DNA of 64,000 nt from Cupriavidus sp. WGlv3 (lineage in GTDB: Bacteria > Pseudomonadota > Gammaproteobacteria > Burkholderiales > Burkholderiaceae), in assembly GCF_023952475.1 (NCBI RefSeq), contig NZ_JALHRX010000020.1, forward strand, positions 1 through 64,000. Direction: 5' to 3'. Positions 45,940-64,000 of this stretch are shown here, one piece after another. A model generated the notes under the pieces. That model was not told where the DNA came from, did no database searches, and was given only the letters and a program-made list of their open reading frames with translations. The translations under genes were made by a program, and so were the position numbers. Each line of letters starts with the position of its first letter. Within the stretch, counting starts at the first letter, position 1.

Positions 45940-45947
45940 GGCGCTCC

Positions 45948-46775: not shown

Positions 46776-46778
46776 CGG

Positions 46779-49175
46779 TCAGGCTGCCTTCCTGTTTTGG
46801 GCATCGGCCTCGGCCGCTTCCAGTGCTTCCAGGATCTTGCGCGGCGTCAGCGGCGTCTCCTTCAACTCGACGCCAAAATCACGCAGCGCGTCGTTGACGG
46901 CATTGAAGATCGCCGCCGGCGGCGCGATCGCCCCGCCCTCGCCCATGCCCTTGGCGCCGAACTCCGTATGCGGTGACGGCGTCTCGAAATGATGGATGCG
47001 GATCGACGGGATCTCGGTCGGCCCCGGCAGCATGTAGTCCGCCAGCGTCGACGCCAGTGGCTGGCCGTTGCCGTCGTAATGCATCGCTTCGAACATCGCG
47101 GTGCCGATACCCTGCGCCACGCCGCCGTAGGTCTGCCCTTCGACCACCATCGGGTTGATCATGGTGCCGCAGTCCTCCACCACGACGTAGTCAAGAATCT
47201 CGACGTGGCCGGAATCGATGTCGACTTCCACCGCCACCGCATGCGTGGCATAGGTAAAGCTGCCGGTATCGACGGCGGGCTTGAAGCCCATCGTGACTTC
47301 CAGCCCCTGCGCATCGACGTCCGGTGGCAACAGGTGCGGGTTGATGTACCAGGCGTTGGCGATGCGCGCGATGTCGGCGGTGCCCGCATCCCCGGCCGCC
47401 ACGGCCCCGTCGCGGAACACCACGGCATCCTGCGGCAGGCCCAGCATGTGCGCACCGATCCTCAGCAGGCGCGGCAGCAGCGCCTTGCACGCGCGCGACA
47501 CCGCGCCGCCGGACATCACCAGCGAGCGCGACGCATACGTGCCCGTCGAGAACGGCGTCAGGCCGGTATCGCCGTGCACGACCTTGATCCGCGCGATGTC
47601 GATGCCAAGGATCTCGTTGGCGATCTGCGCGAAGGTGGTCTCCATGCCCTGCCCGTGCGAATGCACGCCCACGCGCACCTCCAGCCCGCCGTCCGGCGTG
47701 ATGCGTACCGTCGCCGAATCGAAGCCCGGAATCACCGGAGTGCCCCACGCGGCGAACACCGAGGTGCCGTGCGCCGATTGCTCGGTGTAGGTGCCGAAAC
47801 CCACGCCGACATAGGTGTTGCCCTGGGGGCCCGCCCTCTGGCGTGCGCGGATCGCGGGCAGGCCGATCATCTCCATGGCCTTGCGTACGCTGGCCGGGTA
47901 ATCGCCGCCGTCGAAATGCTTGTTGGTGACGTTGACATAAGGCATGGCCTCGGGTGGCACGAGGTTTTCGCAACGCACCTCCCAAGGTTCGCGTCCCACC
48001 TCGCGGGCGATGGCGTCGATCATCAGTTCCATCGCAAAGCAGACGCCGGTGCGCGCCACGCCGCGATAGGGTACGAAGCCCGGCTTGTTCGTCGCCACGC
48101 AAGTGGTTTCGCAGCGGTAGCCGTCAAAGGCGTACGGCCCCGGCAGGTTGCCGATCGCCTGCCCCGGTTCCAGCCCGATGGTAAAAGGCCATACCGAATA
48201 GGCACCGCCATCGATCACGACCTTTGCATCGAGCGCCAGCAGGCGGCCGCGCGCATCGGCATACGCGGTCAGGTCGTAGTGGTGCTCGCGCGAGTTCGCG
48301 CCAGCGGTCAGGTGCTCGCGCCGGTCCTCGATAAAGCGGAACGGGCGCTTGTGGGTCAGCGCCAGCCAGGCGATGCACAGCTCTTCCTGCTGCAGCACGC
48401 ACTTGTAGCCAAAGGCGCCGCCCACGTCGGGCGAGATCACCCGCACGCGCTCCTGCTCCAGCCCCAGGCACTGCGCCAGGATCGTGCGGATCATGTGCGG
48501 CACCTGCGTCGCGCTGTAGACCACCAACTGGTCGAACTGATGGTCCCAGTAGGCCAGCACCGCCTTGCCTTCCATCGGCACCATGCACTGGCGCGCGAGG
48601 TCGATCTGGCGGCGCACCACCACCGTGGCCTCGCGCTGGCGCGCCTCGAAGTTCTTGTCGGCGGTCAGCGTCAGGAAGGTGTTGTCGCGCCAGTGGTCGT
48701 GCACGCGCACCTCGCCGGCTAGCTGGCGGGCCTGCGCCACGTCGGCCAGCGCGGGCAGCTCGTCGAACGACACGGCAACCTGCTCGGCAATGTCCTCGGC
48801 CTCGGCGCGCGTGGGCGCGAATGCCATCGCCACCGGCTCGCCGACAAAGCGCACCTTGCCGCAGGCCAGAGGCGGCTGCGCCGAGGGCTGGTAGGACGGG
48901 AAGGACGAGTCGGCGACGATGTCGCTGGCCGCCGTCATGTCTTCACGCACGATCACCGCGGCGGCGTGTTCAGACGGCTTGGCCACGGACAGCAGCCGGG
49001 CGTGCGCCACCGGGCTGCGCAGGAACGCCACTTCCTGCAGGTCCGGCATGGCGATGTCCGCGACGAAGCGGCCCTTGCCGTGCAGGTGGCGCGCGTCCTC
49101 CTTGCGCGCCACGCGGGCGCCGACGCCCTGCCCGCGCGAGTTTTCCGGATGATCCGGTTCCATCGACGATGTCAT
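46779..49175 (-). CDS. Molybdenum hydroxylase large subunit, probable picolinate 6-hydroxylase
   Basis: A 798-residue molybdopterin subunit of the xanthine dehydrogenase/CoxL family. Motifs include VGGAFGYKCVLQQEE, VPYRGVARTG, HSHGQGMETTFAQIA and the catalytic glutamate near residue 746 in GMGEGGAIAPP. The CO dehydrogenase loop with active-site Cys (AYxCSFR) is absent, so it is a hydroxylase, not a CO dehydrogenase. In Alcaligenes faecalis the PicA enzyme of this family hydroxylates picolinate at C6, and all later pathway genes are here. The ATG at 49175 is used because farther starts fall in the operator at 49205. Confidence 0.85.
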   Translation of the reverse strand: MTSSMEPDHPENSRGQGVGARVARKEDARHLHGKGRFVADIAMPDLQEVAFLRSPVAHARLLSVAKPSEHAAAVIVREDMTAASDIVADSSFPSYQPSAQPPLACGKVRFVGEPVAMAFAPTRAEAEDIAEQVAVSFDELPALADVAQARQLAGEVRVHDHWRDNTFLTLTADKNFEARQREATVVVRRQIDLARQCMVPMEGKAVLAYWDHQFDQLVVYSATQVPHMIRTILAQCLGLEQERVRVISPDVGGAFGYKCVLQQEELCIAWLALTHKRPFRFIEDRREHLTAGANSREHHYDLTAYADARGRLLALDAKVVIDGGAYSVWPFTIGLEPGQAIGNLPGPYAFDGYRCETTCVATNKPGFVPYRGVARTGVCFAMELMIDAIAREVGREPWEVRCENLVPPEAMPYVNVTNKHFDGGDYPASVRKAMEMIGLPAIRARQRAGPQGNTYVGVGFGTYTEQSAHGTSVFAAWGTPVIPGFDSATVRITPDGGLEVRVGVHSHGQGMETTFAQIANEILGIDIARIKVVHGDTGLTPFSTGTYASRSLVMSGGAVSRACKALLPRLLRIGAHMLGLPQDAVVFRDGAVAAGDAGTADIARIANAWYINPHLLPPDVDAQGLEVTMGFKPAVDTGSFTYATHAVAVEVDIDSGHVEILDYVVVEDCGTMINPMVVEGQTYGGVAQGIGTAMFEAMHYDGNGQPLASTLADYMLPGPTEIPSIRIHHFETPSPHTEFGAKGMGEGGAIAPPAAIFNAVNDALRDFGVELKETPLTPRKILEALEAAEADAQNRKAA

Positions 49176-49204: not shown

Positions 49205-49251
49205 TCAGCATACTGAGCAAAATCCTATGAAAACGGCCCCTGCCCTGTCAA
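49205..49251 (-). promoter_or_regulatory. Promoter and PicR-type operator of the hydroxylase operon
   Basis: On the minus strand, TTGACA (49246-49251) and TAGGAT (49222-49227) are 18 bp apart. TCAGCATACTGA (49205-49216) covers the expected transcription start, so a bound protein would block initiation. The site is one of nine TCAG-N4-CTGA elements in this locus. Confidence 0.72.
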
Positions 49252-49296
49252 TTGGGCTTTACCGCATCCCGGCAGCCGCCCCGCCCCTTCAGGCGC

Positions 49297-49923
49297 CTAT
49301 TCGCGCACGCCGATGGCGGCAAGTCCCTCCGCCCGCGTCGCGACCGTTGCGTACTTCTGCGCCATGTCGAACAGATTGGCCTCATGCGGCCCCAGCGCGC
49401 GGTCGCCCACGCAGTCGGACAGCACCAGCGGGCGGAAGCCGTACTGCATCGCATCGACCACGCTGGCGCGCACGCAGCCGCTGGTGACGGCACCGGCCAC
49501 CACCAGCGTGCGCACGCCGCGCTGCGTCAGCCATGCCGCCAGCGACGTGCCGAAGAAAGCCGACGGCACGGTCTTGCGCACCACCGGCTCGCCCGGGCGC
49601 GGCGCCAGTTCTTCCACGATGGCGCTGTTGAAGGCATGCTCCTTCAGCGTCAGCATGTTCGGCACTTTCATCGAGAAGACGTTGTGGTCGGCGCCATCGT
49701 CGGCAAAGACGATGCGGCTGTGCGCGACCGGCCAGCCTTGGCGCCGCGCCACCGCGAGCAGCGGCACGGTACTGGCAATGGCCTCGCGGATATTGCCGCC
49801 GCCGAAGACCGCCGGATCGGCAAAGCCGTTGACGAAGTCCACGATCAGCAGCCCGAAGGGCCCATCCAGCTCCAGCGCATTGCCGAAGCCCTGGCGCTGG
49901 TACGCGCCGATTTCCTTGTGCAT
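49297..49923 (-). CDS. picF: Maleamate amidohydrolase (NicF/PicF)
   Basis: A 208-residue isochorismatase-family amidase, expected to hydrolyse maleamate to maleate and ammonia. The catalytic triad is Asp29 (LLIVDFVNGF), Lys117 (VRKTVPSAF) and Cys150 (VTSGCVRAS). The ATG at 49923 shares one base with the stop of the dioxygenase gene. Position directly after the ring-cleavage and deformylase genes supports the step. Last gene of the picC operon. Confidence 0.88.
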   Translation of the reverse strand: MHKEIGAYQRQGFGNALELDGPFGLLIVDFVNGFADPAVFGGGNIREAIASTVPLLAVARRQGWPVAHSRIVFADDGADHNVFSMKVPNMLTLKEHAFNSAIVEELAPRPGEPVVRKTVPSAFFGTSLAAWLTQRGVRTLVVAGAVTSGCVRASVVDAMQYGFRPLVLSDCVGDRALGPHEANLFDMAQKYATVATRAEGLAAIGVRE

Positions 49924-50981
49924 CACGACTTGTCCTCCGGGTAGCGGAAACCGTCGGTCACCTTGCCCGCGGTCACCACGTCGACGCCGTCCAGGCGGAC
50001 GGTGCAGCGGCGCACCGGGATGTCGATATGGCAGGCCGTGGTGCGATGGCCGCCGGCCTCGTTGTTCGGGCCGAGCGAGAACAGGAAGTTGCCCTCGAAC
50101 GCGCGCGCATCCATGCCAATGGTGGCCTCGCGGTCGTACAGGCCCAGCGTCGACCAGTGCGCGCGCGGCTGCAGCCCCCAGCCGATATGCGAGATCGCGT
50201 ACGCTTCCGGGTCGTTGAACGACGCCATGTACTCGCTCAGCAGCTCGGCATGGAGCCCGCCCTCGATGCGCGTCGCAAAGCCGGCCTCCACCGTCAGGCG
50301 GATCGGCTCGGTCACGTAGGTCTTCTGCGGCAGCAGGATGTCGCCCTGGTCCAGCACGATGGTGCCGTGGGCGGCGCCTTCGTCCGGCCAGGTCAGCGCG
50401 AAGCCGCTGGGCCAGTGGTCCCAGCGCCCGGGCTCGTCGACAAAGCCGTACTCGCTGATGGCAGGGAATTCACCCAGCGGGCAGCGCAGGTCGGTGCCGG
50501 CGGGCGAGACCACGTGCATTTCCTTTGCGCTTGCCAGCCGCTGAGACGCCGCCTTCACGCGTTCGCGATCGGCCTCGCAGGGCACCAATCGGGCCAGCAC
50601 CTCGGGCGGCTCGACGGCGAGCAGGATTTTGGTGCCGCCCTGCAGGATCTCGTGCTGCTCCGGCGAGAACAGCAGCGTCATCAGATCCAGCACCAGGTCG
50701 CTCGCCTTCAGTGCGGCGATGGCCGCCGGATTGCCGGTCAGCGGCGTGGTACCGAGGTAGGCGAGCGCATCGCGGCTCAGTGCCTTCTCGCCGTTGACGG
50801 GCGGCAGGTCGAGCCGGTTGACGATGGCGCCCATCGATTGCGTGGCGGTGAGCGCGGTGGACAGCGTCTGCGGGTGGGTAGCGGCGCTGGTGAGGATGGT
50901 GACGGTCTGTCCCGGCTCCAGCCGGGACAGCCGCAGCACCTTGCGCCAGGCCTCGATCATCTGGTGGTCGCTTACCGGCAT
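49923..50981 (-). CDS. picD: 2,5-dihydroxypyridine 5,6-dioxygenase (NicX/PicD)
   Basis: A 352-residue iron-dependent extradiol-type dioxygenase of the NicX family, which cleaves 2,5-dihydroxypyridine to N-formylmaleamate. The fold is related to M29 aminopeptidases. Candidate metal-binding residues lie in VEAGFATRIEGG, GWGLQPRAHWSTLGLYDRE and EAGGHRTTACHIDIP. The ATG at 50981 overlaps the deformylase stop by 10 bases. The product is the substrate of the neighbouring deformylase. Confidence 0.87.
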   Translation of the reverse strand: MPVSDHQMIEAWRKVLRLSRLEPGQTVTILTSAATHPQTLSTALTATQSMGAIVNRLDLPPVNGEKALSRDALAYLGTTPLTGNPAAIAALKASDLVLDLMTLLFSPEQHEILQGGTKILLAVEPPEVLARLVPCEADRERVKAASQRLASAKEMHVVSPAGTDLRCPLGEFPAISEYGFVDEPGRWDHWPSGFALTWPDEGAAHGTIVLDQGDILLPQKTYVTEPIRLTVEAGFATRIEGGLHAELLSEYMASFNDPEAYAISHIGWGLQPRAHWSTLGLYDREATIGMDARAFEGNFLFSLGPNNEAGGHRTTACHIDIPVRRCTVRLDGVDVVTAGKVTDGFRYPEDKS

Positions 50982-51826
50982 GTCGGCTCCTTGTTCGCTG
51001 ATTGCGCCAGCGGCGCGCCGAGGAAATCCCCCAGCGCCGCGTAAAAGCCAGCTTCGTCGTCCCACGGGATCATGTGGCCGGCATTGGCGACGTGGCTGCC
51101 CAGCACGCCGGGCAGCAGCGTGCGGATTTCCGCGACGTCTTCGGGCCGCACCACGTCGCCACGGCCTGCGGTCATCAACAGCGTGGGCACCCCGACCCGC
51201 GGCATGTCGGCGTGGACGTCGTCACGGTGGAAGTCCTCGAAGCTGCGCACCACCGCGTCTTCGTTGCAGGTGTGCAGCCATTCGGCGCGCAGGCGCAGTT
51301 GCGCGTCGGTCCAGGTCGGGCAGAAGCGGCGCATGCCTTCCAGGTCGGTGCCTTCCCGGGACAGCCGGATCGAATCGACGTACCACGGCAGTTGCGCCGG
51401 ATATGGGCGACGCCCGGGGCCCGAGACAGGCGGGTCGACCATCACCAGCCGCGCCAGCCCGTGCGGCCTTCCCGCCGCGGCTCGCAGGCCGATCCGCGCG
51501 CCCATCGAATGGCCGACCACGCTGTAGCGCGGCAGGCCCAGCGCTTCGGCAAAGGCGACGACGTCGCGCGCCTGCGCATCGAGGCCATAGTCGAGCCCCG
51601 GCTCCGCCGACGACAGCCCGCGGCCGCGCACGTCGAGGATGTAGGTGTCAAAGCGCGTGCCGAACTGCTCGCCGACAAACCCCCATGTGATCGCGGGGCT
51701 GGTGATGCCGGGCACGATAACGACGGCGTCGCGCCCGGCACGCTCGCCCTCATTGCCGCCGTAGCGCAGGTAATGCTGGCGGATGCCATTGGCATGAACC
51801 TGGCCTCCGTATTGGAAGGTACTCAT
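50972..51826 (-). CDS. picE: N-formylmaleamate deformylase (NicD/PicE)
   Basis: A 284-residue alpha/beta hydrolase that removes formate from N-formylmaleamate to give maleamate. Nucleophile Ser107 in VVGHSMGAR, Asp131 in MVDPPVSG and His251 in ANAGHMIPWDD form the triad, as in NicD. It lies between the maleate isomerase and dioxygenase genes with overlap or short spacing. Confidence 0.87.
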   Translation of the reverse strand: MSTFQYGGQVHANGIRQHYLRYGGNEGERAGRDAVVIVPGITSPAITWGFVGEQFGTRFDTYILDVRGRGLSSAEPGLDYGLDAQARDVVAFAEALGLPRYSVVGHSMGARIGLRAAAGRPHGLARLVMVDPPVSGPGRRPYPAQLPWYVDSIRLSREGTDLEGMRRFCPTWTDAQLRLRAEWLHTCNEDAVVRSFEDFHRDDVHADMPRVGVPTLLMTAGRGDVVRPEDVAEIRTLLPGVLGSHVANAGHMIPWDDEAGFYAALGDFLGAPLAQSANKEPTCR

Positions 51827-51835
51827 GGCCGCTCC

Positions 51836-52588
51836 TCAGTAGGCGCCGGACAGCAGCGCACCCGCGCCCGGCACGACCGGCTCAAGGTCCAGCGCCCGGA
51901 GCATCGCGTAGGTAGTGGCAATGGCGGCGGTCAGCACCGGCTTGCCGGTCATCGCCTCGACCTTCGCCACGGCCGGCAGCGACGGCATCTGCACGCAGGC
52001 AGACAGCACGATCACGTCGGCGTCCCGCGTGTTCATCTGCGCGACGATGCCGGGCAGCCGCGCGGGATCGTGGCGGCCGACTTCCAGGTTGTCGGGGATT
52101 TCCAGGGCGCGATAGTCCACGACTTCATAACCCTCGTTGCGGATATAGTCCACGACCAGTTCGGTCAGCGGCTTCATGTAGGGCGCGACCACTGCAATGC
52201 GCTTCGCGCCCATCACCTTGAGCGCATCCACCAGCGCGCCGGCACTGGTGATGACGGGCGCGTCGCCGCCGTTCGCGGTGGTATGTGCCTTCAGGCGCTG
52301 CTCGGATTGCCGGTGGTAGCCGTGGCCCATCGCCATGATCGCGACCAGGCAGGCATAGCCGAGCACGTCGACGCGGGCATCGCTCAGCTCCACCGCGCAG
52401 CGGTCGGACTCGGCATCCATTGCCGCCAGTTCTTCCTTGACCACCTTCTTCATCCGCATGCGGCTGGAATGGAAGGTGAAGCGTTCCGGGCGGATCTGCT
52501 GGCGCGCCATTAGCATGGCAGGGATTTCGGTTTCCATCGTCGTGTTCGAGCTGGGGACGATCTGGCCGATACGAAAGACTTTTTGCAT
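51836..52588 (-). CDS. maiA: Maleate cis-trans isomerase (NicE/MaiA)
   Basis: A 250-residue Asp/Glu racemase superfamily enzyme turning maleate into fumarate. The two catalytic cysteines are Cys80 (LGYACLVAIM) and Cys198 (LSACVQMPS); the substrate-binding SSNTTME is at 13-19. Including the isomerase inside the operon makes the route to the TCA cycle complete. Nine bases separate it from the deformylase gene. Confidence 0.9.
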   Translation of the reverse strand: MQKVFRIGQIVPSSNTTMETEIPAMLMARQQIRPERFTFHSSRMRMKKVVKEELAAMDAESDRCAVELSDARVDVLGYACLVAIMAMGHGYHRQSEQRLKAHTTANGGDAPVITSAGALVDALKVMGAKRIAVVAPYMKPLTELVVDYIRNEGYEVVDYRALEIPDNLEVGRHDPARLPGIVAQMNTRDADVIVLSACVQMPSLPAVAKVEAMTGKPVLTAAIATTYAMLRALDLEPVVPGAGALLSGAY

Positions 52589-52608
52589 GGGGTTTCCAGG
52601 TTGTGCGA

Positions 52609-53571
52609 TCAGAGCTTGAGCAGGCGTTGCGCGTTGCCGTGGCAGACCAGTGCGCGCGTGGTGTCGTCGAGCGGCGCGCTCTCGATGAACCGCGCGGCCA
52701 CTTCGGTGGATTCATAGGGATAGTCGACCGAGAACATCACCGCCTCGGGTCCCAGTTCAGCGATGGCGCCCATCAGCGCGCCGTGCGAGCACACGCCCGA
52801 GGTGGTGATGACGATATTGCTGCCGATGTACTCGGACGGCGCGCGCTGCAGCTTGACGCCGTGTGAGTAGACCGCGAAGCGGCTGTCGAAGCGCCAGCGC
52901 TGATACGGCAGGCCCTCGCCCATATGGCCGAGGATCAGCTTCAGATTTGGAAAGCGGTCAAACACGCCGCTGAACAGCAAACGCAGCGCGTGCGAAGCGG
53001 TTTCCACGCCCCAGCCCCACGCGGCTCCCGCCAGCTCGGGATGGCCGGCGAGGACTTGCGGCGACACGAAGGCATCGGTCGGATGCAGGTACATCGGCAC
53101 GTCCAGCGCCTGCATGCGCTCCCAGAACGCGTCATACGCCGGGTCGTCGTAGTAGCGGCCATGCGTATGGCCGTTCACCAGCGAGCCCTTGAAGCCGAGC
53201 TGCAGCACGGCGCGCTCCAGCTCGGCCGCCGCCTGTTCGGGATCCTGCATCGGCAGCGCGGCAAAGCCGGCATAGCGCGTCGGATGGCGGGCGATCTGCG
53301 CTGCCAGGAAGTCATTGCTCTCGCGCGCCCGAGTCAGCGCGAGGCCGGCGTCGGCCTCGCCCTGCACGCCCGGGCCGGTTTGCGAAAGCACGGTGATGTC
53401 GATGCCGCAGCGGTCCATCTCGTCCAGGCGTTCCTCGTCGAAATCGGCAAGGCGGCGACCGAGTTCGGCAAACACCGCCGGATCGATATGCTGGGTGAAC
53501 CCTTTGGAGTAAGCCTGGAAGCCGGGGGTCATGAAATGCTCTTCCAGAGCGATCTTCTTCACGTAGGTCAT
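52609..53571 (-). CDS. picC: 3,6-dihydroxypicolinate decarboxylase (PicC type, amidohydrolase 2 family)
   Basis: A 320-residue metal-dependent decarboxylase of the ACMSD/gamma-resorcylate family. Metal ligands are expected from IALEEHF (Glu10, His12), MYLHPTD, ILGHMGEGLPY and the Asp in FSVDYPYES. PicC of Alcaligenes, in this family, decarboxylates 3,6-dihydroxypicolinate to 2,5-dihydroxypyridine. Its position as first gene of the operon that begins 2,5-dihydroxypyridine cleavage fits well and separates this locus from nicotinate clusters, which lack it. The start at 53571 has AGGAG 11 bases upstream. Confidence 0.85.
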   Translation of the reverse strand: MTYVKKIALEEHFMTPGFQAYSKGFTQHIDPAVFAELGRRLADFDEERLDEMDRCGIDITVLSQTGPGVQGEADAGLALTRARESNDFLAAQIARHPTRYAGFAALPMQDPEQAAAELERAVLQLGFKGSLVNGHTHGRYYDDPAYDAFWERMQALDVPMYLHPTDAFVSPQVLAGHPELAGAAWGWGVETASHALRLLFSGVFDRFPNLKLILGHMGEGLPYQRWRFDSRFAVYSHGVKLQRAPSEYIGSNIVITTSGVCSHGALMGAIAELGPEAVMFSVDYPYESTEVAARFIESAPLDDTTRALVCHGNAQRLLKL

Positions 53572-53653
53572 GCTGGTGGGGGCTCCTGCTAGATGAAATT
53601 GCGGCGTGCCGGGCCTGTCGCGCGTGTGCAAACGCGCTAGCTGCGCCAATTGC

Positions 53654-53665
53654 TCAGTACACTGA
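53654..53665. promoter_or_regulatory. PicR-type operator of picC
   Basis: TCAGTACACTGA, a full TCAG-N4-CTGA site. It lies about 10 bases downstream of the picC -10 element, at the expected transcription start. Confidence 0.7.
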
Positions 53666-53675
53666 TTATTTGCGG

Positions 53676-53704
53676 ATTCTAGTCAGCGGATTTTCAAAAG
53701 TCCA
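53676..53704 (-). promoter_or_regulatory. Sigma-70 promoter of picC
   Basis: On the minus strand, TGGACT (53699-53704) and TAGAAT (53676-53681) are separated by exactly 17 bp. The leader to picC would be about 95 nt and includes the operator at 53654. Confidence 0.6.
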
Positions 53705-53749
53705 GATGCCGCGCGGAGGGTTAACACCTATAACGATGCGCAAAGTCGC

Positions 53750-53783
53750 TCAGTACACTGACTCGAAATGCTCAGTATGCTGA
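53750..53783. promoter_or_regulatory. Two PicR-type operators, 22 bp apart
   Basis: TCAGTACACTGA (53750-53761) and TCAGTATGCTGA (53772-53783). Their starts are 22 bp apart, two helical turns, allowing side-by-side binding. A weak promoter toward the permease (CTGACT near 53758, GACAAT near 53782) overlaps them. Confidence 0.65.
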
Positions 53784-53865
53784 CAATATGAAATGGTCGT
53801 TTAAAAACGGACCTTCGGGCGACTGGGGAGACACCAGCAAGCGCCCGCACTGGTCCGCATTTTGC

Positions 53866-53897
53866 TCAGCATACTGCGCTTCTAATCAGCATACTGA
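53866..53897. promoter_or_regulatory. Two PicR-type operators upstream of the permease gene
   Basis: TCAGCATACTGC (53866-53877, one mismatch) and TCAGCATACTGA (53886-53897), with starts 20 bp apart. They lie about 130 bp before the permease start codon. Confidence 0.62.
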
Positions 53898-54023
53898 CTG
53901 ATGCACCGGCAGGATGCAGCGCTGCACAGTAGCGGGTCACGACGACCCGCGTCACCGGCGCCGGCACCACCGGGAAGCAAACAAACAACAGAGACAACGG
54001 CCTGACCAAGAGGAGCCCCCGCC

Positions 54024-55640
54024 ATGACGATCAGCCTGACTCGCGCCAAAACGCGCGTCGAAAACCACGCCCCCGCCTCCGGCATGACCGCCGAAGAACG
54101 CAAGGTCATCCTTGCCTCATCCTTCGGCGCCCTGATGGAGTGGTATGACTTTTACATCTACGCGGCGCTGGCAGTGTACTTCGGCGCACTGTTCTTTCCG
54201 CCGGGCAATGAAACGGCCGCCTTCCTGGCCAGCCTGGCCACCTTCGGCGCAGGCTTCCTGATCCGCCCGGTGGGCGCGCTGCTGTTCGGTCGCCTGGGCG
54301 ACCGGATCGGCCGCAAGTACACCTTCCTGGTCACCATCCTGCTGATGGGAGTGGCCACCGTGGGCGTCGGCGTGCTGCCGACATACGAGCAGATCGGCAT
54401 CACCGCCACGGTGCTGCTGGTGCTGCTGCGCCTGCTGCAAGGCCTGGCGCTCGGCGGCGAAGTGGGCGGCGCGGTCACGTATGTCGCCGAGCACTCGCCG
54501 GCAAGCAAGCGCGGCCTCTACACCAGTTCGTTGCAGACCACCGCCACGCTGGGGCTGCTGGCCTCGTTGTTCGTGGTCTACCTGCTCAAGACCTTCCTGA
54601 CCGAAGCGGAATTCCGCGCGTGGGGCTGGCGCATCCCGTTCATCGTGTCGCTGGTGATGCTGGTGATTTCGGTCTATATCCGCGGCAAGCTGCATGAATC
54701 ACCGGTGTTCGCGCGCATGAAGGCCGGCAATGCCACCTCGAAATCCCCCATCCGCGAGAGCTTCACCCAGTGGCAGAACCTGAAGTCGGTGCTGCTGCTG
54801 TTCGTGGTGGCCGCCGGGCTGGGCGCGATTTTCGGCACCGGCCACTTCTACAGCATGTTCTTCCTCAACAAGACGCTGCACGTGCCGATCGAAACCGTGC
54901 ACAAGCTGATCGCCATCGCACTGGTGGTGGCCACGCCGTGCTACCTGTTCTTCGGCTGGCTGTCGGACCGCATCGGCCGCAAGTACATCATGATGGCGGC
55001 GTGCCTGCTGGCGGCGCTATGCATCCAGCCGGTGTTCAAGGGGCTGACCCACTACGCTAATCCGGCGCTGGAGCAGTTCCAACGTCAAGGCGCGGTGCAG
55101 GTGAGCGCCGGCGACTGCCGGGCGCGCCTGTTCGGCGAACCGGTGTCGGCCTGCGACAAGATCCGCGGCTACCTGACCGACCTGGGCGTGGGCTACACCT
55201 TCGTGCCGGCCAGCGATCCGGCACAGGCCGAGGTACGTATCGGCGAGCGTACTCTGCAGGGCTTCGACCGCGCCGCCATCAAGGGCGCGCTGATCGAGGC
55301 CGGATGGCCCGAGCGCGCCGATCCCGCCAGGATGAATACGCCGATGGTATTCATGCTGCTGCTGGTGCCGATCCTGTTCCTGGCCATGGTCTATGGCCCG
55401 ATGGCCGCCTTCATGGTCGAGCTGTTCCCGGCCAGGGTGCGCTACACCTCGCTGTCGCTGCCCTTCCACCTTGGTGCGGGCTGGGTCGGCGGCATGCTGT
55501 CGTTCGTGGTCACGGCGATGAACGTGTCCAGCGGCGACGTGTACTTTGGCCTCTGGTATCCGGTGGTCATCGCCGGACTCGCCTTCGTCATCGGCATGGT
55601 GTTCGTGCCGGAGACGCGCGGGCGTGACCTGTCCACCTGA
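54024..55640 (+). CDS. MHS-family major facilitator permease with large periplasmic-side insertion
   Basis: A 538-residue metabolite:proton symporter-type MFS protein. Family signatures are SSFGALMEWYDFYIYAALA, FLIRPVGALLFGRLGDRIGRK, LALGGEVGGA and FFGWLSDRIGRKY. Between transmembrane segments 8 and 9 there is an insertion of about 90 residues (335-425) with conserved-looking Cys residues (GDCRARLFGEPVSACDK). Control by the same operators as the catabolic genes suggests uptake of picolinate or a related pyridine carboxylate. The start at 54024 has GAGGAG upstream; a terminator follows. Confidence 0.82.
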   Translation: MTISLTRAKTRVENHAPASGMTAEERKVILASSFGALMEWYDFYIYAALAVYFGALFFPPGNETAAFLASLATFGAGFLIRPVGALLFGRLGDRIGRKYTFLVTILLMGVATVGVGVLPTYEQIGITATVLLVLLRLLQGLALGGEVGGAVTYVAEHSPASKRGLYTSSLQTTATLGLLASLFVVYLLKTFLTEAEFRAWGWRIPFIVSLVMLVISVYIRGKLHESPVFARMKAGNATSKSPIRESFTQWQNLKSVLLLFVVAAGLGAIFGTGHFYSMFFLNKTLHVPIETVHKLIAIALVVATPCYLFFGWLSDRIGRKYIMMAACLLAALCIQPVFKGLTHYANPALEQFQRQGAVQVSAGDCRARLFGEPVSACDKIRGYLTDLGVGYTFVPASDPAQAEVRIGERTLQGFDRAAIKGALIEAGWPERADPARMNTPMVFMLLLVPILFLAMVYGPMAAFMVELFPARVRYTSLSLPFHLGAGWVGGMLSFVVTAMNVSSGDVYFGLWYPVVIAGLAFVIGMVFVPETRGRDLST

Positions 55641-55664
55641 GCGCTGCTGACAGTGCATTGACAC

Positions 55665-55686
55665 GGCGGAGAGGTCCGCCCTTTTT
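55665..55686 (+). terminator. Rho-independent terminator after the permease gene
   Basis: GGCGGA (55665-55670), loop GAGG and TCCGCC (55675-55680) are followed directly by CTTTTT. A compact, convincing terminator 25 bp after the stop codon. Confidence 0.8.
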
Positions 55687-55698
55687 ACCCATAAATCT

Positions 55699-55710
55699 CC
55701 AGCATACTGA
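55699..55710. promoter_or_regulatory. PicR-type operator of the ABC transporter operon
   Basis: CCAGCATACTGA, one mismatch from TCAG-N4-CTGA, about 95 bp upstream of the binding-protein gene. A TTTACC/CTGAAT pair with 17-bp spacing overlaps it but is a weak promoter candidate. Confidence 0.55.
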
Positions 55711-55805
55711 ATTATTTCCGACGCGAGCGCGGCGATGGCGCCCGCGTCGGGCGAATGCAGCCATCGCCAACTTCCATCCCTTCGCGCAGACAAACTGGAG
55801 CCCCC

Positions 55806-57023
55806 ATGTCCACCTCTCGCATTCTCCGCACCCTTGCCGCGTCGTCCGCCCTGCTCGGCCTGGCGCAGGCCGCGCCCGCCCTGGCCGACGCCAGCGGCGT
55901 GAAGATCGGCGTCATCACCGATATGTCCGGTTCCTATGCCGACCTGTCCGGCAAGGGCTCGGTCGTTGCCGCCCAGATGGCCGTCGAGGAGTTCGGCGGC
56001 AACGCGCTGGGCAAGCCCGTCACAGTGCTGTCCGCCGATCACCAGAACAAGGCCGATATCGCCTCGTCGCTGGCGCGCCGCTGGTTCGATACGGACGGTG
56101 TCGACATGGTGATCGACTTCCCCAACTCGTCGACCGCGCTGGCGGTGCAGGAAGTCGCGCGCCAGAAGCAGAAGATCGATATCGTCTCCACCGGCGGCGC
56201 CATGGCGCTGACCAACCAGAACTGCTCGCCCACGGGATTCCACTGGACCTGGGACACTTACTCGGTGTCGTATCCGCTGGTGCGCCGCCTGATCGACCAG
56301 GGCCGCAACAGCTGGTACTACATCACGGTGGATTACGCCTTCGGCCAGTCGCTGGAAGCCGACTTCCGCAAGGCCGTGGATGCCGGCGGCGGCAAGAACG
56401 TGGGCAGCACCCGCCATCCGCTCAATGCCAGCGATTTCAGCAGCCCGGTGGTCGCGGCCTCGGCCTCCAAGGCCAAGGTGGTGGTGCTGGCCAATGCCGG
56501 CAATGACATGATCAACGGCGTCAAGGCCGCCGGCGAGTTCGGCCTGATCAAGGCGGGGCAGACGGTCATCACCCCGTCCACCTTCATCACCGATCTCAAG
56601 AGCCTGGGCCTGCCCGCCGCGCAGGGCCTGACCTATGTCGATCCGTTCAGGCTCGACCTCGACGCGAAGTCGAAGGACTTCGTCGAGCGCTACTACAAGC
56701 GCCACAAGGCGTATCCCACGCACGGGCAGATCGGCGTCTATTCCGGCGTGCTGCACTACCTGAAGGCCGTGGAGGCCGCCAGGACCGTCGAGGGCCCCGC
56801 GGTGGCGGACAAGATGCGCGCGCTGCCGGTCAACGATGCCTTCGTGCGCAATGGCAAGGTCCGGATCGACGGCCGCATGGTGCACGACATGTACCTGGCC
56901 CAGGCCAAGACGCCGGCGGAATCGAAAGGCCCTTGGGACCTGGTCAAGTACATCGGCACGATCCCCGGCGACGAAGCCTTCCGCCCCCTCTCCGCCAGCG
57001 AATGCGCGCTGGTCAAGAAGTGA
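55806..57023 (+). CDS. Branched-chain-type (LivK-like) ABC substrate-binding protein
   Basis: A 405-residue periplasmic receptor, signal peptide 1-28 (AAPALADA). It has the typical start VKIGVITDMSGSYADLSGKG and a two-lobed fold, and LivK-type sequences such as GLTYVDPFRLDLD. This subgroup often binds aromatic acids rather than amino acids. First of five genes for a complete HAAT-type importer; picolinate or a breakdown product is the likely ligand from context. GGAG lies six bases before the ATG. Confidence 0.82.
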   Translation: MSTSRILRTLAASSALLGLAQAAPALADASGVKIGVITDMSGSYADLSGKGSVVAAQMAVEEFGGNALGKPVTVLSADHQNKADIASSLARRWFDTDGVDMVIDFPNSSTALAVQEVARQKQKIDIVSTGGAMALTNQNCSPTGFHWTWDTYSVSYPLVRRLIDQGRNSWYYITVDYAFGQSLEADFRKAVDAGGGKNVGSTRHPLNASDFSSPVVAASASKAKVVVLANAGNDMINGVKAAGEFGLIKAGQTVITPSTFITDLKSLGLPAAQGLTYVDPFRLDLDAKSKDFVERYYKRHKAYPTHGQIGVYSGVLHYLKAVEAARTVEGPAVADKMRALPVNDAFVRNGKVRIDGRMVHDMYLAQAKTPAESKGPWDLVKYIGTIPGDEAFRPLSASECALVKK

Positions 57024-57031
57024 GCGCGCCC

Positions 57032-57801
57032 ATGCCTGAGCAAGACGTGATCCTGCGCACGCAGGGGCTGACCAAGGCGTTCAAGGGCTTCACCGCCGTC
57101 AGCGATGTCAGCCTGTCGGTGCGGCGGGGCTCGATCCATGCGCTGATCGGGCCCAATGGCGCCGGCAAGACCACCTGCTTCAACCTGCTGACCAAGTTCC
57201 ACGCTCCCTCGTCGGGCTCCATCCATTTCAATGGTGCCGACATCACCGCGCTGCGGCCGGCGCAGATCGCCCGCATGGGCGTGATCCGTTCGTTCCAGAT
57301 TTCCGCGGTGTTTCCGCAACTGACCGTGCTCGAGAACGTGCGCATCGCGCTGCAGCGCAAGCTGGGCACGTCGTGGCATTTCTGGCGCGGCAGGCGCTCG
57401 CTGTCGCAGCTGGATGCGCGCGCCATGGAACTGCTGGACGACGTGGGCCTGGCCGGCTTCGCGCACCTGGGCACGGCCGAACTGGCCTATGGCCGCAAGC
57501 GCGCGCTGGAGCTGGCCACCACGCTCGCCACCGATCCCGAGCTGATGCTGCTGGACGAGCCCACGCAGGGCATGGGCCACGAGGACGTCGAGACAGTGAC
57601 CGCGCTGATCAAGCGCGTGTCGGCGGGACGGACCGTGCTGATGGTGGAGCACAACATGAGCGTGGTGTCGTCGATCGTCGATCGCATCACGGTGCTGCAG
57701 CGCGGCGCCGTGCTGGCCGAGGGCACGTATGACGAGATCTCGCGCGACCCGCAGGTAAAGGAAGCCTATATGGGAACCACGGAAGACCAGCAGGAGGCCG
57801 C

Positions 57802-57805
<4 letters not shown>
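57032..57805 (+). CDS. livG: LivG-type ABC ATPase
   Basis: A 257-residue ATPase of branched-chain-type importers. Walker A GPNGAGKTT starts at residue 40; Walker B is LMLLDEPTQGMG; the LivG-specific RSFQISAVFPQLTVLENV is present. The signature loop reads LAYGRKRALELA rather than LSGGQ, which is common for this subfamily. A GTG at 57020, overlapping the receptor stop, is an alternative start. Confidence 0.85.
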
Positions 57806-58539
<734 letters not shown>

Positions 58540-58551
58540 GGAGACCTTGTC

Positions 58552-59436
58552 ATGGAATTGTTTGGAGTGCCCCTGCCCGCGCTGCTGAGCCAGCTGCTGC
58601 TGGGGCTGGTCAACGGATCGTTCTACGCGATCCTGAGCCTGGGGCTGGCAGTGATCTTCGGCCTGCTCAACGTCATCAACTTCGCGCATGGCGCGCTGTT
58701 CATGCTAGGCGCGGTGCTGGCCTGGATGGGACTGAACTACCTCGGCATCAACTACTGGCTGATGCTGCTGCTGGCGCCGCTCGCGGCCGGCGCGCTGGGC
58801 GTGGTGCTGGAGCGCACCATGCTGCGCCACCTGTACCGCTTCGACCATCTGTATGGCCTGCTGCTGACGCTCGGCATCTGCCTGCTGATCGAAGGCTTGC
58901 TGCGCTCGGTCTACGGCGTCTCCGGCCTGCCCTACCCCACCCCGGAAGCGCTGACCGGTGTCAGCCAGCTGGGCTTCATGGTGCTGCCCAACTACCGTGC
59001 CTGGGTGGTACTGGCTTCGCTGACGGTGTGCTTCGCCACCTGGTTCATGATCGAGAAGACGCGGCTCGGCGCCTACCTGCGCGCCGGCACCGAGAATCCG
59101 CGCATGGTCGAGGCCTTCGGCGTCAACGTGCCGCTGCTGGTGACGCTGACCTATGCCTTCGGCGTTGGCCTGGCGGCGCTCGCCGGCGTGCTCGCCGCCC
59201 CGGTGATGCAGGTGTCGCCACTGATGGGGCAGAACCTGATCATCACGGTGTTCGCGGTGGTGGTGATCGGCGGCATGGGCTCGATCCTTGGCTCGATCTT
59301 TACCGGCCTGGGGCTGGGTGTGTTCGAAGGCATGACCAAGGTCTACTACCCCGAAGCTTCGGCGACCGTTGTCTTCGTCGCCATGGTCTGCGTGCTGCTG
59401 GTGCGGCCGGCCGGCCTGTTTGGAAAGGAGAAATGA
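58552..59436 (+). CDS. livH: LivH-type ABC permease
   Basis: A 294-residue permease with about eight hydrophobic segments. The N-terminal LVNGSFYAILSLGLAVIFGLLNVINFAHGALFM and the coupling region RAGTENPRMVEAFGVNV are typical. AAGGAG lies eight bases before the start; it overlaps livM by up to four bases. Confidence 0.88.
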   Translation: MELFGVPLPALLSQLLLGLVNGSFYAILSLGLAVIFGLLNVINFAHGALFMLGAVLAWMGLNYLGINYWLMLLLAPLAAGALGVVLERTMLRHLYRFDHLYGLLLTLGICLLIEGLLRSVYGVSGLPYPTPEALTGVSQLGFMVLPNYRAWVVLASLTVCFATWFMIEKTRLGAYLRAGTENPRMVEAFGVNVPLLVTLTYAFGVGLAALAGVLAAPVMQVSPLMGQNLIITVFAVVVIGGMGSILGSIFTGLGLGVFEGMTKVYYPEASATVVFVAMVCVLLVRPAGLFGKEK

Positions 59437-60479
59437 TGGCAAGCACCACTAACGCAACGCGGCCGCTGCTCGCGTATGGACTGCTGCTGGCGGCCCTGCT
59501 GCTCGCGCCCTGGCTGGGCGCCTACCCGGTGCTGGTGATGAAGCTGCTGTGCTTCGCGCTGTTCGCCTGTGCCTTCAACCTGCTGCTGGGCTATACCGGG
59601 CTGGTGTCGTTCGGCCATGCCGCCTTCTTCGGCGGCGCGGCCTACGCCTGCGGCTACGCGATGAAGTCGCTGCAGCTCACGCCGGAACTGGCGCTGCTGG
59701 GCGGCACCGCCTTCGGCGCCCTGCTGGGGCTGGTGTTCGGCGCGCTGGCGATCCGCCGCCAGGGCATCTACTTCGCCATGATCACGCTGGCGCTGGCGCA
59801 GATGTTCTACTTCTTCTGCCTGCAGGCACCGGTCACCGGCGGCGAAGACGGCATGCAGGCGGTGCCGCGCGGCGAGCTGTTCGGCGTGCTGCCGCTGGCG
59901 TCCGACCACACCATGTACTACGTCGTGCTGGCGATCACCGTGGCTGCCTTCCTCGGGATCATGCGCATCGTCGACTCGCCCTTCGGGCAGATCCTGCGGG
60001 CGATCAAGGAGAACGAGCCGCGCGCGGTCTCGCTGGGCTATGACGCGGACCGCTTCAAGCTGCTGGCGTTCGTGCTGTCGTCGGCGCTGGCGGGGCTGGC
60101 GGGGGCGCTCAAGACGCTGGTGCTGGGCTTCGCCACGCTGACCGATGTCCACTGGATGATGTCGGGCTCCGTGATCCTGATGACCCTGGTCGGCGGCATG
60201 GGCACCCTGTCCGGCCCGCTGGTCGGCGCGCTGGTCATCGTCGCGCTGGAGAACAAGCTGGGCGATGCGGGCAACGCGCTGGCGGCGATGACCGGGATCG
60301 GCTGGTTCGATACGTTGGGCGAGTCGGTGAGCATGGTGACAGGGCTGATCTTCGTGGTCTGCGTGCTGACGTTCCGCCGCGGCATCATGGGCGAGATCCT
60401 GGCGCGGTCGCAGGCACGTCCGACGCTGCAGCACAATGCCGCGGCCACGCCAGGGACGGCACGCACCAGCCAGGGTTAA
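59436..60479 (+). CDS. livM: LivM-type ABC permease
   Basis: A 347-residue permease with eight to ten hydrophobic segments (LGYTGLVSFGHAAFFGGAAYACGY, IKENEPRAVSLGYDADRFKLLAF). AGGAG is five bases before the second ATG at 59436, preferred over 59433. A polar tail of about 25 residues ends the protein. Last gene of the importer operon. Confidence 0.88.
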   Translation: MASTTNATRPLLAYGLLLAALLLAPWLGAYPVLVMKLLCFALFACAFNLLLGYTGLVSFGHAAFFGGAAYACGYAMKSLQLTPELALLGGTAFGALLGLVFGALAIRRQGIYFAMITLALAQMFYFFCLQAPVTGGEDGMQAVPRGELFGVLPLASDHTMYYVVLAITVAAFLGIMRIVDSPFGQILRAIKENEPRAVSLGYDADRFKLLAFVLSSALAGLAGALKTLVLGFATLTDVHWMMSGSVILMTLVGGMGTLSGPLVGALVIVALENKLGDAGNALAAMTGIGWFDTLGESVSMVTGLIFVVCVLTFRRGIMGEILARSQARPTLQHNAAATPGTARTSQG

Positions 60480-60503
60480 CGAGGATATTTCGCCCCCAAA
60501 ACA

Positions 60504-60538
60504 TCAGTACACTGATACTCATATACTCAGCATACTGA
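60504..60538. promoter_or_regulatory. Paired PicR-type operators and -10 of the Rieske operon
   Basis: TCAGTACACTGA (60504-60515) and TCAGCATACTGA (60527-60538), starts 23 bp apart. TATACT (60522-60527) between them is a good -10; the -35 region is poor. Binding at both sites would cover the promoter. The ferredoxin gene begins 19 bases further on. Confidence 0.7.
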
Positions 60539-60556: not shown

Positions 60557-60868
60557 ATGAACATGGCATGGATTCACATCGATGCGGCCGACACGCTGCA
60601 GAACGACGAGGTGATGCCGCTGACGCTGGGCGATCGCCAGCTTGCCGTCTATCGCAGCGATGACGCGTACTTTGTCACCGACAACGTCTGCACGCACCAG
60701 TACGCGCTGCTGTCGGACGGCTACCTGGAAGACGGCTGCATCGAATGCCCGCTGCACCAGGCCCGCTTCGACATCCGCACCGGCAAGGCGATGTGCGCGC
60801 CCGCCACCGGCGATATCCGCACCTACCCGGTCAAGATCGAAGACAGCCGGGTGTGGGTCGAGTTGTAA
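60557..60868 (+). CDS. Rieske [2Fe-2S] ferredoxin of the picolinate-pathway oxygenase
   Basis: A 103-residue Rieske ferredoxin with CTH (Cys45, His47) and CPLH (Cys64, His67) cluster ligands. It is the electron carrier of a multicomponent oxygenase, taking electrons from the reductase encoded 11 bases downstream. It corresponds to one of the four PicB components of Alcaligenes. The start at 60557 is the first Met; 60563 is also possible. Confidence 0.88.
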   Translation: MNMAWIHIDAADTLQNDEVMPLTLGDRQLAVYRSDDAYFVTDNVCTHQYALLSDGYLEDGCIECPLHQARFDIRTGKAMCAPATGDIRTYPVKIEDSRVWVEL

Positions 60869-60879
60869 GGGAGCCGGTC

Positions 60880-62160
60880 ATGACACAGCACACGCCCATC
60901 CTGATCGTCGGCGCCGGCCAGGCCGGGGCCATGGCCGCCGCCGCGCTGCGCGGCCTTGGCCATGGCGGCCGCATCGTCATGGCAGGCGGCGAACGGCACG
61001 CGCCATACGAGCGCCCGCCGCTGTCCAAGTCCGTGCTCGCCGACGCCGCACAGGACGGCAAGATCGGCGTGCACCCCGCCAGCTTCTATGCCGACCAGGG
61101 CATCGAGCTGCGGCTCGGCACCTGCGTCACCGCGCTCGATGCCGCGCGGCAAGTCGCGCACCTGGCCGACGGCAGCGCCATCGGCTATGGCGCCTGCCTG
61201 CTCGCCACCGGCGGCAATGCCCGCGCGCTGCCCGCGCTGCCGCCCGGCACGCCCCATGTGCATTACCTGCGCTCGCTGGACGACGCGGCGCGCCTGCGCG
61301 ACGCCATGCAGCGCGCAGGCGAACTTGTGGTGATCGGCGGCGGCTTCCTTGGCCTGGAGACCGCTTCGACCGCTGCAGGCATGGGCCTGAAGGTCACGCT
61401 GGTCGAGAGCGCGGACCGCCTGCTGGGTCGCGCGCTGCCGCCGGAGCTTGGCGCATGGCTGGCGGATCGGGTGCGGGCGCAAGGCGTGACCCTGCGTCTT
61501 GGTTGCGGCATCGCTCACTGCGAGGTCCAGGGCGATGGCGTGCAAATGCGGTTCGACGACGGCTCCGCGCTGCCCGCTGCGCTGGTGGTGGTCGCGATTG
61601 GCCTGACACCGGAAGTGGCGCTCGCCGCCGGCGCTGGCCTGGCGCTGCATTCGCAGAATGGCGGCATCCAGGTCGACGAAAAGTGCCGCACCAGCGCGCC
61701 GTCGATCTATGCCGCTGGCGACTGCTGCAGCCAGTACCAGCCGCTGTTCGGCGCCGAGATGCGGCTCGAGTCCTGGCAAAGCGCCAATGAACAGGCGCGC
61801 ATCGCGGCGGCGGCGATGCTGGGCGTGGCGGCGGAGCCCGCGGCGCTACCGTGGTTCTGGACCGACCAGTTCGGATGCAACGTGCAGATGCTCGGCGCCG
61901 CGCATCCGGATCTCCGCTATGCCTGGCGCGGTATCGCGGCCCACGATGCCGCCGCCCCGAAGTTCATGCTGCTCGGCACCCGACACGGCCGCCTGCGCCA
62001 TGCCATTGCCGTGAATGCCGGCGGCGACCTGCGCCAGCTGCGCGCACTGGTCGGACACGACGTCTCGGCGCACCTGGCACGCCTGTGCGACGACACATTG
62101 CCGCTGCGGCAGGTCGTGCGCGAACGGCAGGCGGAAGCAGACAGCTCCATCACACTCTGA
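60880..62160 (+). CDS. FAD-dependent ferredoxin reductase of the oxygenase system
   Basis: A 426-residue FAD/NAD(P)H reductase. FAD-binding ILIVGAGQAGAMAAAALR (about 7-24), the PYERPPLSKSVL segment, the NAD-binding LVVIGGGFLGLETASTAAG (about 147-165) and the second FAD site IYAAGDCCSQYQ are typical of class IIB oxygenase reductases. It passes electrons from NADH to the Rieske ferredoxin. Confidence 0.88.
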   Translation: MTQHTPILIVGAGQAGAMAAAALRGLGHGGRIVMAGGERHAPYERPPLSKSVLADAAQDGKIGVHPASFYADQGIELRLGTCVTALDAARQVAHLADGSAIGYGACLLATGGNARALPALPPGTPHVHYLRSLDDAARLRDAMQRAGELVVIGGGFLGLETASTAAGMGLKVTLVESADRLLGRALPPELGAWLADRVRAQGVTLRLGCGIAHCEVQGDGVQMRFDDGSALPAALVVVAIGLTPEVALAAGAGLALHSQNGGIQVDEKCRTSAPSIYAAGDCCSQYQPLFGAEMRLESWQSANEQARIAAAAMLGVAAEPAALPWFWTDQFGCNVQMLGAAHPDLRYAWRGIAAHDAAAPKFMLLGTRHGRLRHAIAVNAGGDLRQLRALVGHDVSAHLARLCDDTLPLRQVVRERQAEADSSITL

Positions 62161-62173
62161 GAGGACCCCACAC

Positions 62174-63463: not shown

Positions 63464-63491
63464 ACGCGGCCTGACGGGAATCCAAAAGCCT

Positions 63492-64000
63492 ATGAAACCG
63501 ATGAACTACTCCCTCTATCGCGAGAGCACCCTCGGCACCGCGCGCGCGATCGAACTGCGGCTGGAGATCGATGCCTTCCACGCGGACTATTGCGCGGCAC
63601 TGGACGCCGGCATGGTCGAGCACTGGCCGGGCTTCTTCACCGACGATGCGCTCTACCGCATCACCGCGCGCGAGAACGCCGAACGCAACCTGCCGGTCGG
63701 GCTGGTGTATGCCGAAGGCATCGGCATGATGCGCGACCGCGCCGCGGCGATCGCCAGTACGCAGATGTTCGCGCCGCGCTACAACCTGCACCTGGTGACC
63801 AATACCCGGGTCAGCGATGAAACCGCCGACGGCGACATCGTGGCGCAGGCCAATTTCATGCTGTTGCAGACGCTGGTGGAGGGGCCCACCACGATCCATC
63901 TCGCCGGCACCTATCACGACCGCTTCCGCCGCCAGGGCGGCAGGCTGCTGCTGCGCGAGCGGCAGGTGGTGTATGACACCACCATCATCGCGAACGACCT
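63492..64000 (+). CDS. Rieske oxygenase small subunit (partial, runs off window)
   Basis: The first 169 codons of a beta subunit with the NTF2-like fold (IDAFHADYCAALDAGMVEHW, FTDDALYRITARENAERN, TNTRVSDETADGDIVAQANF). The frame is open to the window end, and such subunits are usually about 160-180 residues, so little is missing. Start at 63492, or 63501 (MNYSLYR). It would form a mixed alpha-beta hexamer with the preceding subunit. Confidence 0.82.
   Translation, partial: MKPMNYSLYRESTLGTARAIELRLEIDAFHADYCAALDAGMVEHWPGFFTDDALYRITARENAERNLPVGLVYAEGIGMMRDRAAAIASTQMFAPRYNLHLVTNTRVSDETADGDIVAQANFMLLQTLVEGPTTIHLAGTYHDRFRRQGGRLLLRERQVVYDTTIIAND

What the first reader, a model, noticed from the sequence alone, without database searches (positions are those of the whole stretch)
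49205..60538. Nine TCAG-N4-CTGA operators define one regulon across four promoter regions
Sites at 49205, 53654, 53750, 53772, 53866 (one mismatch), 53886, 55699 (one mismatch), 60504 and 60527 all fit TCAG-YAYR-CTGA closely. They sit at the promoters of the hydroxylase operon, picC operon/permease, ABC importer and Rieske operon. The same motif (TCAG-N4-CTNN) is reported for PicR, a MarR-type repressor. The nine-fold repetition and close pairing (20, 22 and 23 bp between starts) go beyond the three sites I recall in Alcaligenes.
Basis: partly seen in the sequence, partly recalled or inferred. Interest (0 to 1): 0.85.

Follow-up and report, generated by a model that had tools for sequence, protein, structure and literature searches.

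The report
PicR operators of picolinate-degradation regulon
Nine copies of a short mirror-image DNA word mark the on/off switches of genes that let this soil bacterium take up and eat picolinic acid; they are very probably the binding sites of one repressor protein encoded next door, a well-organised member of an already known kind of switch.

Summary
All nine sites are at the stated coordinates. TCAGYAYACTGA without mismatch occurs 7 times in the 6.75 Mb genome, all 7 inside these 11.3 kb. The sites are conserved at fixed places in 8 other Cupriavidus clusters, with few exceptions. In 80 picC loci, TCAG-N4-CTGA is enriched only with a 4-base spacer (225 copies against 5-30). It lies before first genes of operons (picC 50 of 80, Rieske ferredoxin 50 of 66) and before none of six kinds of internal gene (0 of 57-73 each). 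In 60 genomes of the genus, 22 with picC and picR have 5-10 exact sites, 37 without picR have 0-5. A tenth, half-degenerate operator is conserved in picR's own promoter. Best explanation: PicR dimers, alone or in pairs 20-23 bp apart, block the promoters of the picolinate path and both importers until a pathway acid releases them. DNA binding, repression and inducer are inferred; the PicR paper could not be read. New member of a known kind, unusually complete.

The parts
49205..49216 (-). operator of the molybdenum-hydroxylase (picA-like) operon, 30 bp before the ATG at 49175; behind TTGACA-N18-TAGGAT
   Evidence: exact site found in 6 of 8 relatives (not necator, basilensis), TTGACA in all 6 of these
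53654..53665 (-). operator at the inferred start point of picC; behind TGGACT-N17-TAGAAT
   Evidence: TCAG-N4-CTGA in 8 of 8 relatives
53750..53761 (.). upstream operator, first of a pair 22 bp apart, between picC and permease
   Evidence: last base C in 3 of 8 relatives, exact in 5 of 8
53772..53783 (.). upstream operator, second of the pair
   Evidence: TCAG-N4-CTGA in 8 of 8 relatives
53866..53877 (+). operator of the MFS permease, first of a pair 20 bp apart, conserved last base C
   Evidence: identical in 7 of 8 relatives, no such site in basilensis
53886..53897 (+). operator of the MFS permease, second of the pair
   Evidence: TCAG-N4-CTGA in 7 of 8 relatives, not basilensis
55699..55710 (+). 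operator of the ABC importer operon, off consensus in this strain (CCAG)
   Evidence: TCAG-N4-CTGA in 8 of 8 relatives
60504..60515 (+). operator of the Rieske (picB-like) operon, first of a pair 23 bp apart
   Evidence: 8 of 8 relatives
60527..60538 (+). operator of the Rieske operon, second of the pair; its first T ends the TATACT -10-like hexamer
   Evidence: 8 of 8 relatives
44773..49175 (-). three-subunit molybdenum hydroxylase (picA1A2A3-like): Mo subunit 46779-49175, FAD subunit 45948-46775, 2Fe-2S subunit with CoxG domain 44773-45939
   Evidence: Pfam; starts
49297..53571 (-). picC (52609-53571), maleate isomerase picG (51836-52588), deformylase picE (50972-51826), 2,5-dihydroxypyridine dioxygenase picD (49923-50981), amidohydrolase picF (49297-49926)
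   Evidence: best solved relatives: maleate cis-trans isomerase 4fq7 E 1e-113, deformylase 4l0c E 8e-84, 2,5-dihydroxypyridine 5,6-dioxygenase 7cn3 E 2e-125, isochorismatase-type 3ot4 E 1e-95; picC: Amidohydro_2, named by cluster context
54024..55640 (+). MFS permease
   Evidence: Pfam Sugar_tr and MFS_1 above cut-off
55806..60479 (+). ABC importer of the branched-chain amino acid type: binding protein 55806-57023, ATPases 57032-57805 and 57802-58539, permeases 58552-59436 and 59436-60479
   Evidence: Pfam (binding protein); starts
60557..64000 (+). Rieske oxygenase operon (picB-like): ferredoxin 60557-60868, reductase 60880-62160, large subunit 62174-63463, small subunit from 63492, ending 16 bases beyond the window. 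Beyond the window follow picR (L023:68-598, minus strand, 64068-64598 in continued numbering) and the tenth operator (L023:615-626, 64615-64626)
   Evidence: Pfam; starts; picR and tenth operator

Best explanation
The sites are operators of PicR, the MarR-type repressor encoded at 64068-64598. A PicR dimer binds the 12-bp palindrome TCAG-YRYR-CTGA (often extended to T-N2-TCAG-N4-CTGA-N2-A); where two sites stand 20-23 bp apart, two dimers sit side by side on one face of the DNA, about two turns apart. Bound PicR covers the -10 or start point and keeps shut the molybdenum-hydroxylase operon, the picCGEDF operon, the MFS permease, the ABC importer, the Rieske oxygenase operon and, through a weaker site, picR itself. 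Picolinate or, more likely, 6-hydroxypicolinate binds near PicR's dimer interface and releases it, so that uptake and all steps to fumarate switch on together. Shown here: sites, regulator gene, conservation, exclusivity. Inferred: DNA binding by this protein, promoter positions, repression, cooperativity, inducer.
For: 7 of 7 exact genome sites in the cluster. MarR gene adjacent. Only the 4-base spacer is enriched, 225 against 5-30 for spacers 0-3 and 5-9 in 80 picC loci; TCAG ranks first of 256 palindromic half-sites within 300 bp upstream of picC, 80 against 9 for the next, 75 loci counted. Sites within 300 bp before picC in 50 of 80 and Rieske ferredoxin in 50 of 66, before internal genes in 0 of 66, 72, 73, 72, 60, 57. 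Genus: all 22 genomes with a close picC (21 at 79% or more, G053 in pieces) also have picR at 81% or more and have 5-10 exact sites; 37 without such a picR have 0-5. Genome G052 lacks the cluster by one deletion, keeps picR at 97% and has 1 exact site, on another contig. Exact neighbours closer than 90 bp are 20-23 bp apart, 22 of 22. picR promoter block with TCAG in 23 of 23 homologues. Nearest solved relative PcaV, a MarR repressor of protocatechuate catabolism, E 8e-24, with the Arg-Arg and His of helix 1 shared.
Against: No binding, footprint or expression data. 30 of 80 picC loci have no exact site within 350 bp of picC although many encode a PicR-like protein, so operon layout or operator differs there. 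The right half of the picR site is CTGA in 0 of 23 homologues. One genome without close picC or picR (G013) has 5 exact sites, on five contigs. The 18-bp extension is complete in only 4 of the 9 window sites. My idea that operators are generally fused to the -10 box failed its control: at picC-proximal sites the downstream flank is as TATAA-like as the upstream one (2.82 against 2.80).
Confidence: 0.92

Rival explanations
1. The sites belong to a different regulator (another MarR or an unlinked protein) and the neighbouring MarR gene controls something else.
For: The genome has 11 further MarR-like matches to PicR; binding was not tested.
Against: The 3 of these 11 that the capped list shows are 25-27% identical (the other 8 were not seen). 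All 22 genomes with a close picC and 5-10 sites have the picR orthologue, a PicR-like gene lies in 59 of 80 picC loci, and picR's own promoter holds a conserved half of the motif.
Confidence: 0.05
2. PicR acts at some sites as an activator or by looping between the site groups of the picC-permease region, rather than as a simple road block everywhere.
For: The pair 53750/53772 lies about 80-115 bp upstream of the inferred picC start and 94-116 bp (start to start) before the first permease site; the gaps 53654-53750 (96) and 53772-53866 (94) are near whole turns.
Against: The other sites overlap or abut inferred -10 or start regions; in numazuensis, pinatubonensis and yeoncheonensis one site of the pair has a C as last base.
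Confidence: 0.2
3. Chance or repeat artefact: an abundant word that happens to fall between genes.
For: The loose YAYR form with one mismatch is common genome-wide.
Against: Strict form 7 of 7 in the cluster; conserved positions in other species; none before internal genes.
Confidence: 0.005

Closest known systems
PicR of Alcaligenes faecalis JQ135 (Xu et al. 2022, Appl Environ Microbiol 88:e00172-22), seen only as a title in reference lists; the rest recalled
   Different: Here ten sites at six promoters, with an ABC importer and an MFS permease included; the Alcaligenes site count and protein sequence could not be compared
pic cluster of Bordetella bronchiseptica RB50 (PMC10142695, passages from abstract, introduction, results and discussion seen)
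   Same: picG between picC and picE, picA and picB gene sets, picR near by
   Different: Here picR is convergent to the Rieske operon and about 10.5 kb from picC; in RB50 two genes separate picR from picC
PcaV of Streptomyces coelicolor (PDB 4fht, 4g9y; review and CouR paper, passages)
   Same: MarR repressor of aromatic-acid catabolism, best sequence match among solved structures, shared Arg-Arg and His in helix 1
   Different: Ligand protocatechuate; other pathway and phylum
BpsR of Bordetella, regulator of nicotinate catabolism (PMC6837509, passages)
   Same: MarR protein whose DNA binding is ended by a hydroxypyridine carboxylate, 6-hydroxynicotinate
   Different: Weaker match (6pco and 6pcp, E about 1e-11; that these entries are BpsR is recalled); other substrate

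Membership tests
MarR family | MarR winged-helix domain | tested here: met
   PF01047 E 1.9e-13, 50.5 bits over cut-off 24.6
MarR family | palindromic operators overlapping target promoters | tested here: inconclusive
   12-bp palindromes at inferred -10/start regions; neither start points nor binding were measured
PicR regulon | complete pic gene set (picA, B, C, D, E, F, G) | tested here: met
   enzyme class for every step; picA, picB and picC by domain and context; growth on picolinate not testable
PicR regulon | regulator orthologous to Alcaligenes PicR | not testable with these tools
   sequence of the characterised PicR not at hand; PicR-like MarR in 59 of 80 picC loci
PicR regulon | operator TCAG-N4-CTNN (recalled, not read) | tested here: inconclusive
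   8 of the 9 window sites fit, 55699 (CCAG) does not; picR site ends CATA in 15 and CTAA in 8 of 23
PicR regulon | derepression by picolinate or 6-hydroxypicolinate | not testable with these tools
   needs gel shift or reporter

The most novel reading that the evidence does not exclude
In Cupriavidus the pic regulon has become a two-layer circuit: PicR, with paired operators, was extended to two separate importers so that uptake and degradation switch as one unit, and a second regulator, not encoded next to the cluster, acts on a conserved GTTA-N7-TAAC element at 53720-53734 upstream of picC.
Probability: 0.25. Interest if true: 0.5.

Novelty: new member of a known kind. Interest (0 to 1): 0.33.

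Why it matters
It gives a strict, testable operator rule for a repressor of pyridine-acid breakdown that holds in picC loci of several proteobacterial genera, suggests that an ABC importer was added to the regulon in Cupriavidus (site before the gene in 8 of 8 there, 0 of 6 in the other loci with such a gene), and offers a compact set of single and paired operators for picolinate biosensors.

Tried and rejected
General fusion of operator and -10 box: pooled flanks looked strongly TATAA-like, but the oriented control showed the same on both sides at 49 picC-proximal sites, so this is mostly palindromic extension; the one-sided overlap was seen only for the Cupriavidus Rieske and ABC promoters (10 of 16 against 1 of 16).

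Wider regulon: eight stretches around near-sites elsewhere in the genome were fetched and, with 18 loci of earlier searches, checked; 25 of these 26 lie in long open frames, so no further target is proposed. Not all near-sites were inspected.

Recognition helix against operator type: PicR homologues without a site near picC do not share one distinct helix as read by eye, so no co-variation claim is made.

Literature: neither the PicR paper nor the pic-cluster paper is held; searches gave citing papers or unrelated ones.

Rows dropped before counts: hits under 40% identity or 60% coverage for MFS, binding protein, ferredoxin, reductase and Mo subunit, and PicR hits under 44%, five loci with odd picC positions were left out of the half-site ranking; L037 was too short; one search kept the best 80 of 290 relatives.
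Full report
Observation. TCAG-N4-CTGA occurs 8 times in the window, 7 of them here, against 0.63 +- 0.81 in shuffles. The form TCAGYAYACTGA occurs 7 times without mismatch in the 6,753,806-base genome, all 7 between 49205 and 60538.

Setting. The genes form a complete picolinate pathway: a three-subunit molybdenum hydroxylase, a Rieske oxygenase with ferredoxin, reductase and small subunit, picC decarboxylase and the lower-path enzymes in the order picC-G-E-D-F. The last four have solved relatives named maleate cis-trans isomerase (E 1e-113), deformylase (E 8e-84), 2,5-dihydroxypyridine 5,6-dioxygenase (E 2e-125) and isochorismatase-type hydrolase (E 1e-95). picG between picC and picE is also described for Bordetella bronchiseptica RB50 (PMC10142695, passages). 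An MFS permease and a five-gene ABC importer complete the set. The nearest picC loci found are from Cupriavidus (97% identity), so the genome is taken as Cupriavidus by inference; no tool named it.

Regulator. The stretch beyond the window holds a MarR gene, convergent with the Rieske operon, at 64068-64598. Its start is put at MASRAK because an upstream ATG is not conserved (ACG in L123) while a GGTGA ribosome-site-like word is. Its promoter keeps TCAG-N4-C in 23 of 23 genus homologues (the window's own included) while the flanks further out diverge; the right half is CATA in 15 and CTAA in 8. I read this as a tenth, half-degenerate operator (64615-64626, minus strand) and as a hint of weak self-control.

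Conservation in the genus. In an alignment with 8 Cupriavidus loci the operators stand out against variable flanks. The last base C of 53866 is the same in 7 of 8 relatives (basilensis has no such site), so that 'mismatch' looks functional. 55699 reads TCAG in 8 of 8 relatives; only the window has CCAG. An exact hydroxylase site was found in 6 of 8 (not necator, not basilensis) and follows, in the window, TTGACA-N18-TAGGAT. The picC site follows TGGACT-N17-TAGAAT; Pigmentiphaga (L061) has the same layout with TAGACT. These promoters are readings of mine, not mapped starts.

Presence and absence. Of 60 genomes of the genus, drawn from a larger group, 22 have a close picC (21 at 79% or more, G053 in pieces) and all 22 have picR at 81% or more: 5-10 exact sites each. 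37 lack such a picR: 18 have no site, 15 have 1, 2 have 2, one has 3 and one (G013, on five contigs) has 5. The remaining genome, G052, has picR at 97% but no picC. Its DNA runs from the match to window 45120 straight to the match to window 63011, so about 17.9 kb, with the places of all nine sites, is missing, and parts of the two genes at the ends remain; its only exact site is on another contig.

Beyond the genus. Among 80 picC loci (the best 80 of 290) the motif has 225 copies with a 4-base spacer and 5-30 with any other spacer from 0 to 9; 203 of 225 have a YRYR centre. Within 300 bp upstream of picC, TCAG leads all 256 palindromic half-sites, 80 to 9 (75 loci). Exact neighbouring sites closer than 90 bp are 20-23 bp apart, 22 of 22. 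Sites precede picC in 50 of 80 and the Rieske ferredoxin gene in 50 of 66, and precede Rieske large subunit, NicF, NicX, NicD, maleate isomerase and reductase genes in 0 of 66, 72, 73, 72, 60 and 57. ABC binding-protein genes have a site in 8 of 14, all 8 in Cupriavidus; MFS 10 of 29, 2 of 21 outside Cupriavidus; molybdenum subunit 8 of 59; picR 15 of 59. Against this, 30 of 80 loci lack an exact site within 350 bp of picC. Of these, four (three Advenella, one Devosia) have one with a single mismatch and a YRYR centre at 53-56 bp, and two (L051, L070) TTAG-N4-CTGA at 140-142 bp; the rest have nothing of the kind there.

Mechanism. PicR's nearest solved relative is PcaV (E 8e-24), in which ligand binding near the dimer interface turns the DNA-binding lobes (PMC5487221 and PMC4737184, passages). 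The Arg-Arg of helix 1 is present in all PicR homologues aligned and the His in all but one (L114 has Gly); that these hold the carboxylate is recalled for PcaV, not tested. Most sites lie on inferred -10 or start regions, which fits promoter blocking. In the Rieske and ABC promoters of 8 Cupriavidus loci the operator's first T ends a TATA-like hexamer (10 of 16 with 4 or 5 of 5 matches, 1 of 16 on the other side); at picC-proximal sites no such one-sidedness exists. The inducer is inferred from the pathway and from recall of the PicR work.

Verdict. It is a well-conserved instance of a known repressor type; what adds to it is the count of ten sites at six promoters, the inclusion of two importers, the fixed pair spacing and the conserved exceptions to the motif.

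Noticed in passing
53720-53734: GTTAACACCTATAAC (GTTA-N7-TAAC, preceded by GGG) is conserved in 9 of 9 other Cupriavidus picC loci (basilensis with another centre) and not found within 350 bp upstream of picC in the other 71 loci. Its extended form occurs without mismatch once in the genome, with a two-mismatch copy at 60473 before the Rieske operon (the reversed control has more matches, 40 against 18). It resembles a LysR-type box (recalled); no LysR gene was noticed beside the cluster, without a dedicated search.
   Followed up: partly
L153/L154 (G052): A relative lacks about 17.9 kb of the cluster, apparently by one deletion, but keeps picR (97%), its promoter, and parts of the two genes at the junction.
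   Followed up: yes
55699-55710: The ABC importer operator is CCAG only in this strain; 8 of 8 relatives have TCAG, so the importer may be less tightly repressed here.
   Followed up: partly
L138-L144: Seven genomes of the genus without picR carry a 43-46% identical PicR-like MarR gene; its targets were not examined.
   Followed up: no
L113: A record titled Mesoflavibacter sp. (MAG) encodes a PicC of 66% identity with two TCAG-N4-CTGA sites in the locus; the title may be wrong or the bin mixed.
   Followed up: no
L043, before the ABC importer gene: In C. basilensis the ABC importer promoter has a pair of sites 21 bp apart (TCAG-N4-CTGC and TCAG-N4-CTGA) where the window has one.
   Followed up: no
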